IMG/VR virus record: IMGVR_UViG_3300036823_000044
Location: 1-25,707 of that record
Direction: 5' to 3' (one strand)
Length of the DNA: 25,707 nt
Source of the DNA: a virus
This document shows positions 6,646 through 19,934 of this stretch, in pieces; position 1 is the stretch's first letter; each line of letters starts with the position of its first letter. The notes under the pieces were generated by a model. It worked only from the letters and a program-made list of their open reading frames with translations. It ran no database searches and was not told the DNA's origin. The position numbers and the translations under genes are program-made.

Positions 6646-6704
6646 AGTATCCGCATGTTCACCACCCTTATCCTCTCCAGAGGGAGTCTAGCGTCCCTCA
6701 AGGC

Positions 6705-6749
6705 CCTGCTCGGGCGGAGCCTCATTACTCCTAGGAACACCCGAGCAGG
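6705..6749 (-). terminator. Terminator-like hairpin after exported protein gene
   Basis: A 10-base perfect inverted repeat, CCTGCTCGGG (6705-6714) and CCCGAGCAGG (6740-6749), with a 25-base interior lies 12 bases past the stop of the 232-residue exported protein. A small CCTCT/AGAGG hairpin follows at 6672-6683. There is no T-run, as is common for actinobacterial terminators. Confidence 0.5.
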
Positions 6750-6761
6750 ACGTTCAGAGAC

Positions 6762-11831: not shown

Positions 11832-12256
11832 GAAGCCTTCTCCTGGTCTAGCATGGACTCGAATATGTCCTCCAGCGCCTGGATGCGGTCCTGTAGTGCT
11901 AGGAGCTGTCCGTTGACCTGACCCTTCCAGGTGTTGTCGCGGAGGAGCTTGTTCTCCGAACCGTCAAACAACTCCCAGGTAGGGTCGTCAACCAGCAGCC
12001 ACTTGGAAGGAGCAGCTCCCCCTCCACGTGACAGCTGCCTGACACAGCCCATCTTGCGTAGGCGCTGCATGACGCTGGTGTAGTAGGGAGTGGCGAGCTC
12101 GAGCTGGTTGAAGAGCCTCGTCAAGAAGCCTTCGTATACCAGTGCGTGCTCGTCCTCGATCGTGGTTGCCTTCGCTTCCTTCTTCATCTGCCCGAACACC
12201 GTGAGGCAGTGCTCGTACAACTTCGGAGGCGCTTCCTCCGGTGCTGCGGATGTCAT
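11828..12256 (-). CDS. Putative winged-helix protein with C-terminal coiled coil (142 aa)
   Basis: Residues about 45-90 (LFNQLELATPYYTSVMQRLR, then KMGCVRQLSRGGGAAPSKWLL) look like a winged helix: a helix pair, then a basic glycine-rich wing between strands. The last 40 residues (LLALQDRIQALEDIFESMLD) form a heptad-like coiled coil suited to dimerisation. AAGGTGA precedes the ATG. Likely a DNA-binding regulator; the family was not identified. Confidence 0.55.
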   Translation of the reverse strand: MTSAAPEEAPPKLYEHCLTVFGQMKKEAKATTIEDEHALVYEGFLTRLFNQLELATPYYTSVMQRLRKMGCVRQLSRGGGAAPSKWLLVDDPTWELFDGSENKLLRDNTWKGQVNGQLLALQDRIQALEDIFESMLDQEKAS

Positions 12257-12462
12257 CCCGTCACCTTCTTTCTGATGCTTCGTAGATCGGTCAAGACACC
12301 GCCGTAGCTCCCTGTCCTTGCTAGGAGCTCGTCCCAGCTCTTTGGCCGATCACAATCTGGCGTTTGTTCCGTGTCTTTGTGCATCGCGTCCTCGAACGAT
12401 TCGATTTCGATGTCGAGGACGTCTCGAAGCGTTACACGTTCGCCCTCTGTGAGGTCTTCCAT
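12253..12462 (-). CDS. Small acidic hypothetical protein (69 aa)
   Basis: MEDLTEGERVTLRDVLDIEI... is acidic and helical with one internal cysteine. GGGAG lies seven bases before the ATG, and the stop overlaps the next gene (ATGA). It is the first gene after the structured 460-base gap, so that gap's RNA could act as its leader. No family recognised. Confidence 0.55.
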   Translation of the reverse strand: MEDLTEGERVTLRDVLDIEIESFEDAMHKDTEQTPDCDRPKSWDELLARTGSYGGVLTDLRSIRKKVTG

Positions 12463-12480
12463 GTAATACTCCCTAGAGTG

Positions 12481-12881
12481 GTGAAGAAGGGCGGCTAGCT
12501 AGGAGTTGGGGGTCTTTGCCAACCGCCCTTCGGGTGAGGGACACCAGTGCCCGGCTTGCCTGTCACCACCATCCTTTGGAATCGGGTGCATCAGCTCACG
12601 CAACAGTGTTGTCCCTCACGTCTGGACAGGCAGTAGCAGCCGGGAGAACAACCGCCCTTCACCGACGAGGGGGCCGGGAGGCTCCTCGTTTCTACCCACT
12701 GCTCGGCCTAACGCCCCAAGGCCGCTGCGGTTCGTACTGCCTGCCAAACTAAGCGGAAGAGATAGGGTTCGGAGTGATGAGGTTGGACGGCACAGCACAC
12801 CGAGCTACCCCTACCTCTTCCACGTCTTCAGTTGTCAATTTGCTTACGGTCCCGCGACAGAGGAGATCCGAACGCGGGACC
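12481..12881 (-). ncRNA. Candidate structured RNA or long structured leader
   Basis: The gap 12463-12922 lacks a convincing gene but holds many nested stems. These are 12486-12494 with 12523-12531 (9 pairs), 12534-12543 with 12610-12619 (10), 12550-12564 with 12625-12644 (7+7 with bulges, interleaved with the previous stem like a pseudoknot), 12665-12672 with 12682-12689, 12704-12709 with 12719-12724, and 12755-12767 with 12809-12821 (13 pairs on the minus strand, one G-U). AACCGCCCTTC occurs twice, offering alternative pairing. Direction is inferred from the surrounding genes. No known RNA class was recognised; a tRNA reading fails for lack of a T-arm. Confidence 0.4.
12848..12881 (-). terminator. 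Second hairpin of a tandem terminator
   Basis: GGTCCCGCG (12848-12856) and CGCGGGACC (12873-12881) are a perfect nine-base pair of arms with a 16-base loop, directly after the first hairpin. On the minus strand it is followed by GTAAGCAAATTG, a weak T-poor tail. Confidence 0.5.
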
Positions 12882-12885
12882 TAGT

Positions 12886-12916
12886 GGACGGCGAAGCCAC
12901 GACAGCTCCGCCGTCC
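12886..12916 (-). terminator. First hairpin of a tandem terminator
   Basis: GGACGGCG (12886-12893) and CGCCGTCC (12909-12916) with a 15-base loop, beginning six bases past the stop of the 177-residue gene. Two strong GC stems in a row suggest a real end of transcription. Confidence 0.6.
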
Positions 12917-12922
12917 GGAGGC

Positions 12923-13456
12923 CTACTCGGCCTCGTTGAACGTCTCGTCCTCGCCCTGCGGCTCGGCGGCCTGGGCCTGAGCGACCTCGGCCGGAGGAGC
13001 AGCGGCCACCGGAGCGCCCGCGGCAGCGGTCCCCTCGGCGGTCGTGGCGGGCTGCGTGGAGCGCGCCTTGCGGCGGTCCCACCAGGCGACGCCGTCCTCG
13101 AGCACCAGGCCCGGACGCGTGATGGTCAGCGTGCCCTGGACCATCGGGGTGTCGTACTCCTTGCCGGCGGCGTCGTAGTGCTTGACCGGGAAGGGGTCGT
13201 TCTTGCCGGGGTTCTTGACGAAGGTGTAGAACATCTGCGGCTTGATGTCCGCCGGCGCCTTCCCGAGCCGCACGAGCTCGTTCTTGAGGCCGATCGGGGT
13301 CACCTTGCCAGCGGGCAGCGGGAACCGGCTCGTGCCACTCGCCTGGGCGGCCTGCGGCTGCGGGGCAGCAGGGTCCACCGGGACGGTCGGCTCGACGGTC
13401 TGGCCATCGGCCGTATCGCCCGCCGGGTTCACGGTTTCGGTCGCGGTCTCAGCCAT
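12923..13456 (-). CDS. Putative HTH protein with Ala/Pro-rich flanks (177 aa), paralog of the 19316 gene
   Basis: Residues 50-130 form a compact domain with VTPIGLKNELVRLGK...IKPQMFYTFVKN and a later DGVAWWDRRKAR. The gene at 19316 has ITPFFAARVVNFRLE...VTPQMLYTYAKKG and NGEAFKTWLAKY in the same order, so the two are probably paralogs. The PQMxYT helix followed by a wing resembles MerR/excisionase-like HTH domains. Flanks are Ala/Pro/Glu-rich and probably disordered. AAAGGAGAG precedes the ATG, and a good promoter lies upstream. Likely an abundant DNA-binding protein; the exact role is unknown. Confidence 0.6.
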   Translation of the reverse strand: MAETATETVNPAGDTADGQTVEPTVPVDPAAPQPQAAQASGTSRFPLPAGKVTPIGLKNELVRLGKAPADIKPQMFYTFVKNPGKNDPFPVKHYDAAGKEYDTPMVQGTLTITRPGLVLEDGVAWWDRRKARSTQPATTAEGTAAAGAPVAAAPPAEVAQAQAAEPQGEDETFNEAE

Positions 13457-16573: not shown

Positions 16574-16590
16574 GTTCCCTCCTTCCGCCC

Positions 16591-16616
16591 GGCCCTGTGA
16601 ATTGCTCCACAGGGCC
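16591..16616 (-). terminator. Hairpin terminator between small genes
   Basis: GGCCCTGTG (16591-16599) and CACAGGGCC (16608-16616) form nine perfect pairs with an 8-base loop, 20 bases past the stop of the 51-residue gene and just before the ribosome site of the next. It may end transcription or limit readthrough. Confidence 0.6.
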
Positions 16617-16635
16617 AAGCGCAGCAAGGGACGTG

Positions 16636-19273: not shown

Positions 19274-19725
19274 CAATAGTGCGCTGAGATGCCTTCTAGC
19301 TAGGTACTACAGGTCTTACATGTACTGCGAGGCTAGCGTCTCGATGTCGACGCTTCCGCTGACCTGATCGTTCTTGATGTACTTGGCAAGCCAAGTCTTG
19401 AAGGCCTCTCCGTTGAAGTAGATCTTCTCGCCCTCGCTACGCGTGGCGTAGTTGCTAGCGATAAGCCCCTTCTTGGCGTAGGTGTAGAGCATCTGCGGAG
19501 TGACAGTCTTGTCGATGCCCTCGGCCTCGAGCCTGAAGTTGACGACGCGAGCAGCGAAGAAAGGCGTGATGTTCGACGGGGCCGAAGGGGCTTCGGTCAC
19601 GGTGTCGACGTTCTCGACGTCTTCGGTGCTGACGGTCTCGTTCACGGTGTTCTCGGACATGGTGTTCTCCTCTGTGAGTGATGCGTTGTTGACGAATGAT
19701 TGAGGAGCACCTCAGCGCACTATTG
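19274..19725. repeat. 15-bp inverted repeat flanking the 114-aa gene
   Basis: CAATAGTGCGCTGAG at 19274-19288 and its exact reverse complement at 19711-19725 flank the gene at 19316-19660, with a further TGC match one base beyond. It could be a binding site for the encoded HTH-like protein, or pair within the mRNA. Confidence 0.6.
19316..19660 (-). CDS. Putative HTH protein (114 aa), paralog of the 12923 gene
   Basis: Acidic Ser/Thr/Val-rich N-terminus (1-30), then a domain with ITPFFAARVVNFRLEAEG, VTPQMLYTYAKKGLI and EKIYFNGEAFKTWLAKYIK. The PQMLYT helix plus short wing resembles MerR/excisionase-like HTH domains and aligns with PQMFYT in the 12923 product. AGAGGAGAACACC precedes the ATG. 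It is the first leftward gene from the divergent promoter region and is flanked by 15-base inverted repeats, so it is a candidate regulator of the early/late switch (inference). Confidence 0.65.
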   Translation of the reverse strand: MSENTVNETVSTEDVENVDTVTEAPSAPSNITPFFAARVVNFRLEAEGIDKTVTPQMLYTYAKKGLIASNYATRSEGEKIYFNGEAFKTWLAKYIKNDQVSGSVDIETLASQYM

Positions 19726-19934
19726 AGTTATCAAGTAACAGTTGTTGATTTTTTTGTTTGAATTTGTTTTGCTTATAACTATATTATAATAGCAGAGCAT
19801 GATCTTTACACGACCCGTGGGTCTCACTGGTTGCCGACGGAAAAACATTGGACGGGTGTAGGAAGGGTTTCATGTGTTCCAGTGTGTTAGATGGCCCTTG
19901 TTGAAGCACTTTGCCGTATGTTATAATTATAGAC
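19661..19934. promoter_or_regulatory. Divergent early/late promoter region
   Basis: Leftward and rightward genes diverge here. The AT-rich centre (19741-19790) has TATAAT-like boxes readable on both strands: plus 19785-19790, and minus 19788-19783 and 19777-19772. The right arm of the 15-base repeat (19711-19725) lies in the leftward leader. A GACCC/GGGTC hairpin lies near 19812-19823. No gene is supported inside. Confidence 0.55.
19898..19927 (+). promoter_or_regulatory. Promoter of the packaging operon, probably leaderless
   Basis: TTGTTG (19898-19903), an 18-base spacer, then TATAAT (19922-19927). The small terminase ATG follows seven bases after the -10 box, exactly where transcription should start, and no ribosome site is present. 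The TATAATTATAG core repeats the one at 13493-13503. Confidence 0.65.

What the first reader, a model, noticed from the sequence alone, without database searches (positions are those of the whole stretch)
12481..12881. Dense nest of stems in a noncoding gap, including a pseudoknot-like pair
A region with no gene has several stems of 6-14 pairs. Arms 12534-12543 and 12610-12619 interleave with 12550-12564 and 12625-12644, the topology of an H-type pseudoknot. A 13-pair stem (12755-12767 with 12809-12821) has one position that is G-U on the minus strand but A-C on the plus strand; the 12665-12689 stem instead pairs better on the plus strand, so strand evidence is mixed. A stem of 10 or more pairs is expected a few times by chance in the whole window, but this clustering is unusual. 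It could be a regulatory leader or a phage noncoding RNA of a new class.
Basis: partly seen in the sequence, partly recalled or inferred. Interest (0 to 1): 0.65.

Follow-up and report, generated by a model that had tools for sequence, protein, structure and literature searches.

The report
New two-domain structured RNA in phages
The gene-free stretch encodes a real, evolutionarily conserved structured RNA made of two separable folded domains that match no known RNA family, lying behind a signal like the one bacteria use for ribosomal RNA; what it does is still unproven.

Summary
The gap 12463-12922 is noncoding. Its minus strand, the strand of both flanking genes, folds far better than shuffled sequence (z -6.1; plus strand -2.9). 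Related virus contigs share gene order and RNA. Two independent domains emerge. M1 (12625-12745) has an 11-pair closing stem that pairs in all 6 sequences, 10 of 11 pairs changing on both sides; a second covarying stem; two variable hairpins; and a possible pseudoknot. M2 (12534-12619) has a covarying closing stem and two small conserved hairpins. No Rfam family matches. Upstream (12827-12838) lies a copy of the actinobacterial rRNA-leader antitermination sequence; a second copy heads the operon (19720-19734). The domains come and go independently, M1 also sits after a gene in an unrelated phage, and distant relatives carry tRNA genes in the same gap. Best reading: a phage stable-RNA locus making trans-acting structured RNAs under rRNA-like antitermination. 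The RNA family is near certain, the antitermination signal likely, trans action about even odds. A cis-acting leader is the main rival. Transcription was not tested.

The parts
12625..12745 (-). Domain M1. P1 12735-12745/12625-12635, P2 12727-12732/12650-12655, P3 12719-12724/12704-12709, P4 12684-12689/12665-12670; tentative pseudoknot 12698-12702/12636-12640
   Evidence: Covariation, model hits, coordinates
12534..12619 (-). Domain M2. Closing stem 12610-12619/12534-12543, small hairpin 12597-12608, hairpin with loop GCA 12543-12555
   Evidence: Covariation, model hits
12827..12838 (-). TTGACAACTGAA, copy of the actinobacterial rRNA-leader antitermination motif
   Evidence: 2 matches in the window, 0.02 expected; same motif before 16S rRNA in L052 and L053
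12755..12821 (-).
12486..12531 (-). GC-rich hairpin just before the ribosome-binding site of the 69-aa gene; a hairpin of other sequence is at this spot in L003, L011-L014; attenuator or processing site (inferred)
12848..12916 (-). Two hairpins (12886-12916 and 12848-12881) after the 177-aa gene, upstream of the motif; hairpins of different sequence in L002/L003
19720..19734 (-). Second copy of the motif, TTGATAACTCAATAG, before the first gene of the leftward operon
12253..12462 (-). 69-aa gene downstream of the RNA, part of the conserved synteny
   Evidence: no Pfam match
12923..13456 (-). 177-aa gene upstream of the RNA, part of the conserved synteny
   Evidence: no Pfam match

Best explanation
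The gap is a phage stable-RNA locus. RNA polymerase on the leftward operon crosses an rRNA-leader-type signal (shown as sequence; function inferred) that recruits host Nus factors, so that the untranslated stretch is not lost to Rho or pausing (inferred from rRNA operons). The transcript folds into two independent domains, M1 and M2 (shown by covariation). They are cut out or ended at the flanking long hairpins (inferred) and act in trans as accessory RNAs, most likely by binding a host protein or RNA complex during infection (inferred; target unknown).
For: Covariation of M1 and M2 far above shuffled and slid controls; G-U but no A-C pairs on the gene strand; conserved synteny. Each domain is present or absent on its own: L011 has M1 only, L015 M2 only, L012 and L013 neither. 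M1 lies after a gene and before an oppositely oriented gene in an unrelated phage, L042. tRNA genes lie in the same gap in distant relatives. The rRNA-leader motif precedes the RNA. Precedent: abundant early noncoding RNAs in mycobacteriophages (PMC5712189).
Against: No transcript data. Target unknown. The 69-aa gene must be reached by the same transcript, so a cis role remains possible. L015 lacks the motif before M2. Only 6 distinct M1 and 5 distinct M2 sequences were found.
Confidence: 0.5

Rival explanations
1. A cis-acting leader: M1/M2 together with the motif modify the passing RNA polymerase (as HK022 put RNA or lambda nut do), or control read-through of the 3' hairpin, and so set expression of the 69-aa, 142-aa and following genes.
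For: In all close relatives the RNA sits directly before the same two genes; a hairpin always lies just before the ribosome-binding site; an antitermination motif is next to it.
Against: M1 in L042 is at the 3' end of a transcription unit, facing an oppositely oriented gene. Relatives lacking M1, M2 or both keep the downstream genes. tRNAs occupy the slot elsewhere.
Confidence: 0.3
2. A cluster of aberrant or decaying tRNA-like RNAs in a tRNA array.
For: tRNAs in the same gap of L017, L019-L021 and L038.
Against: ARAGORN and Rfam find no tRNA in the window gap. M1 has no cloverleaf, and M2's 3' hairpin has a 3-base loop where a tRNA has 7. Compensatory changes show selection, not decay.
Confidence: 0.08
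3. A DNA-level element such as a replication origin or protein-binding site, with stems acting in DNA.
For: Dense inverted repeats in the middle of a replication-gene operon.
Against: 6 G-U and 0 A-C pairs on one strand; folding biased to that strand in the window; rRNA-leader motif on the same strand.
Confidence: 0.05
4. Chance clustering of stems.
For: Other windows of the same record have similar energy gains.
Against: 0 of 500 shuffles reach the observed covariation; a model built without L042 finds M1 there.
Confidence: 0.01

Closest known systems
Early noncoding RNAs of mycobacteriophages L5, D29 and StarStuff (PMC5712189)
   Same: Untranslated RNA of a few hundred bases in the leftward early region of an actinophage, function unknown.
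   Different: Neither M1 nor M2 nor the motif is found in D29; the L5/D29 RNA lies at the genome's right end next to Pleft, not in mid-operon.
Actinobacterial rRNA leader nut site (boxA/boxC, NusA and NusB/S10)
   Same: Same core sequence TTGANAACTNAA on the transcribed strand, followed by long untranslated structured RNA.
   Different: Followed by M1/M2 and protein genes, not rRNA; function not tested; boxB not examined.
HK022 put RNA (PMC9378689)
   Same: Structured RNA in a phage early transcript, possibly acting on transcription.
   Different: put is about 70 nt, two stem-loops, near the early promoters; M1+M2 is about 210 nt, lies about 7 kb into the operon, and M1 also occurs at the 3' end of a unit in L042.
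Phage tRNA arrays
   Same: Same syntenic gap holds tRNA genes in distant relatives.
   Different: M1 and M2 have no tRNA features.

Membership tests
Any Rfam 15 family | Score above the family's gathering threshold | tested here: not met
   nothing near threshold for the window, L002, L014 or L015
Actinobacterial rRNA-leader nut (boxA/boxC) element | Core sequence TTGANAACTNAA on the transcribed strand | tested here: met
   12827-12838 and 19723-19734 minus; rRNA leaders L052 and L053 carry it
Actinobacterial rRNA-leader nut (boxA/boxC) element | Binding of NusA and NusB/S10 and resistance to termination | not testable with these tools
   needs binding or reporter assays
HK022 put RNA | About 70 nt, two stem-loops, just downstream of early promoters | tested here: not met
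   different size, topology and position
HK022 put RNA | Binds the zinc-binding domain of the RNA polymerase beta' subunit | not testable with these tools
   needs biochemistry
tRNA | Cloverleaf with T-loop and anticodon | tested here: not met
   ARAGORN none; Rfam none
   second stem lost in L014 and in conflict with covarying P1
H-type pseudoknot RNA | Conserved pairing of a loop with sequence outside its stem (pseudoknot inside M1) | tested here: inconclusive
   7 pairs in L011 (p 0.009) and L014 (p 0.0004), 5 in the window (p 0.25), nothing convincing in L003 and L042
L5/D29 early noncoding RNA | Sequence or structure shared with the D29 genome | tested here: not met
   the L5 record was not held

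The most novel reading that the evidence does not exclude
M1 and M2 are two new families of trans-acting, independently exchanged phage RNA domains, made from an rRNA-like antiterminated stable-RNA locus that in distant relatives carries tRNAs, and used to bind and redirect a host machine or defence.
Probability: 0.35. Interest if true: 0.82.

Novelty: new variant of a known kind. Interest (0 to 1): 0.62.

Why it matters
It adds two well-supported structured RNA families in phages that match no family in Rfam 15, links them to an rRNA-type antitermination signal apparently borrowed by a phage, and shows one genomic slot alternating between tRNAs and unknown structured RNAs. That makes the open question of what the noncoding RNAs of actinophages do testable on defined, modular domains.

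Tried and rejected
DNA similarity to the 50,697 phage records: none. Neighbour proteins in phages and plasmids: none. Prophage or host search in 84,980 species: the 142-aa family and the M2 pattern both empty. Exact-motif scans gave chance hits inside coding genes (L024, L025, L028, most of L040-L051), rejected for lack of a closing stem and of noncoding context. TTGACA at 12833-12838 first looked like a -35 box; rejected because no -10 follows in the window and the conserved core is the rRNA-leader motif. Energy z-score as sole proof: rejected, since other windows score as well. Ribozyme and group I intron readings were considered from memory; Rfam gave no support.

Full report
What is there. 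The window is a 25.7-kb virus record. Its left part is a leftward operon with an AAA ATPase, a PD-(D/E)XK nuclease and a SNF2-type helicase. A terminase gene runs rightward from 20393; its best phage hits are from Arthrobacter, Gordonia and Microbacterium phages, at about 35% identity. The gap 12463-12922 lies between two minus-strand genes, 12923-13456 (177 aa) and 12253-12462 (69 aa, followed by a 142-aa gene). None of the three has a Pfam match.

Folding. The minus strand of the gap folds at -221.9 kcal/mol, z -6.06, 0 of 100 shuffles as good; the plus strand z is -2.87. In a scan of 214 windows the region ranks about fifth by energy gain, so energy alone is not decisive.

Relatives. The 177-aa protein brought L002, L003 and L004, the 142-aa protein 16 loci, and a later scan L038. 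The gene order 177-69-142 is kept in L002, L003 and L011-L015. The gaps were aligned and read.

Two domains. M1 is in the window, L002, L003/L004, L011 and L014; M2 is in the window, L002, L003/L004, L014 and L015; L012 and L013 have neither. M1 has a closing stem P1 of 11 pairs, then P2 of 6 pairs enclosing two hairpins P3 and P4, then a single-stranded stretch back to P1. On five sequences 16 of 28 pairs change on both sides against 6.4 in shuffles, none of 500 shuffles as high, and slid partners pair at 32-49% against 88%. With L042 added through the model, 21 of 28 pairs change on both sides and P1 and P2 are 100% paired (that alignment was fitted to the structure, the one was not). M2 has a 9-pair closing stem, a 3-pair hairpin and a 5-pair hairpin with loop GCA; 0 of 500 shuffles are as high. 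In L002 and L003 two adjacent pairs of its closing stem are G-A and A-G.

Strand. In P1 and P2 of five sequences there are 82 Watson-Crick, 6 G-U and 0 A-C pairs on the gene strand. The structure is therefore maintained in the minus-strand RNA.

Pseudoknot. It is present in the window, kept with G-U pairs in L002/L003, and gone in L014. Inside M1 another pseudoknot could join the stretch after P3 to the bases next to P1: 7 pairs in L011 (p 0.009) and L014 (p 0.0004), 5 in the window (p 0.25), little in L003 and L042. It is tentative.

M1 elsewhere. A pattern scan gave L042; the other new loci look like chance matches without the closing stem. Model R1, built without L042, finds it at E 4e-4 in its whole record. 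There M1 follows a lysin-like gene and a small ORF, precedes an oppositely oriented gene, and is followed by a strong hairpin. This argues against a pure 5' leader.

Antitermination motif. TTGANAACTNAA occurs twice in the window, both on minus, 0.02 expected: at 12827-12838 before the RNA and at 19723-19734 at the operon head. The same motif lies about 155 nt before 16S rRNA in an Arthrobacter rRNA operon (L052) and about 85 nt before 16S in Nonomuraea (L053). Papers place a nut site (boxB, boxA, boxC) in the mycobacterial rRNA leader, with NusA bound to boxC (PMC6614801, PMC12781872). From memory, the M. tuberculosis NusA-RNA crystal structure used GAACUCAAUAG; that paper was not held. The motif also precedes the structured gap in L002, L003, L016 and L038, with shorter AACTNAATAG forms in L011, L012 and L014; it is not before M2 in L015. 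It points to an actinobacterial host (inference).

A stable-RNA slot. In distant relatives tRNA genes lie between the same two flanking genes: L017 (two with CUA anticodon), L019 (three), L020/L021 (one), L038 (one by Rfam), L016 (weak). L012 has another strongly folded stretch there (z -6.8), while the first 600 nt of the L038 gap are not clearly above shuffles.

Interpretation. Shown: a conserved, structured, noncoding RNA with two independent domains on the minus strand; an rRNA-like motif; tRNAs in the same slot in relatives. Inferred: transcription through the gap under Nus control, release of the domains, action in trans. The cis-leader rival keeps weight because the 69-aa gene must be reached by the same transcript. 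The job of M1 and M2 is not known; binding a host protein or RNA complex is judged most likely because both are compact, modular and gained or lost separately.

Known work. Abundant noncoding RNAs from the early region are known in mycobacteriophages L5, D29 and StarStuff, function unknown (PMC5712189); D29 has neither M1, M2 nor the motif. put RNA of HK022 (PMC9378689) is the best-known structured cis antiterminator and differs in size, shape and position. No Rfam family matches.

Noticed in passing
L017 7247-7320 and 7406-7478; L019 1283-1359, 1798-1869, 3206-3299; L020 5681-5751; L021 4107-4177; L038 5560-5636: tRNA genes in the gap between homologs of the 177-aa and 142-aa genes, including two with a CUA anticodon in L017 and a four-base anticodon call in L020/L021.
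   Followed up: partly
L038 5640-6370, L016 6740-7300, L012 7600-7790: Further hairpin-rich noncoding stretches at the same locus that match neither M1 nor M2; possibly other RNA modules.
   Followed up: partly
window 16576-16631 and 6693-6761: Long imperfect hairpins in or next to other gaps of the window with folding gains as large as the finding.
   Followed up: no
record of L015 (G008), 28-42 and 54067-54081: The motif TTGAAAACTAAATAG occurs near both ends of the 54,206-base record, which may mark a terminal repeat.
   Followed up: no
window 19779-19791 and 19720-19734: A promoter-like TATAAT stretch lies about 50 bases before the rRNA-leader motif at the head of the leftward operon, the layout of an rRNA leader.
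   Followed up: partly
L012 6695-7489: A 264-aa gene with a signal-peptide-like start is inserted in the gap between two copies of ACAACTAAATAG.
   Followed up: no
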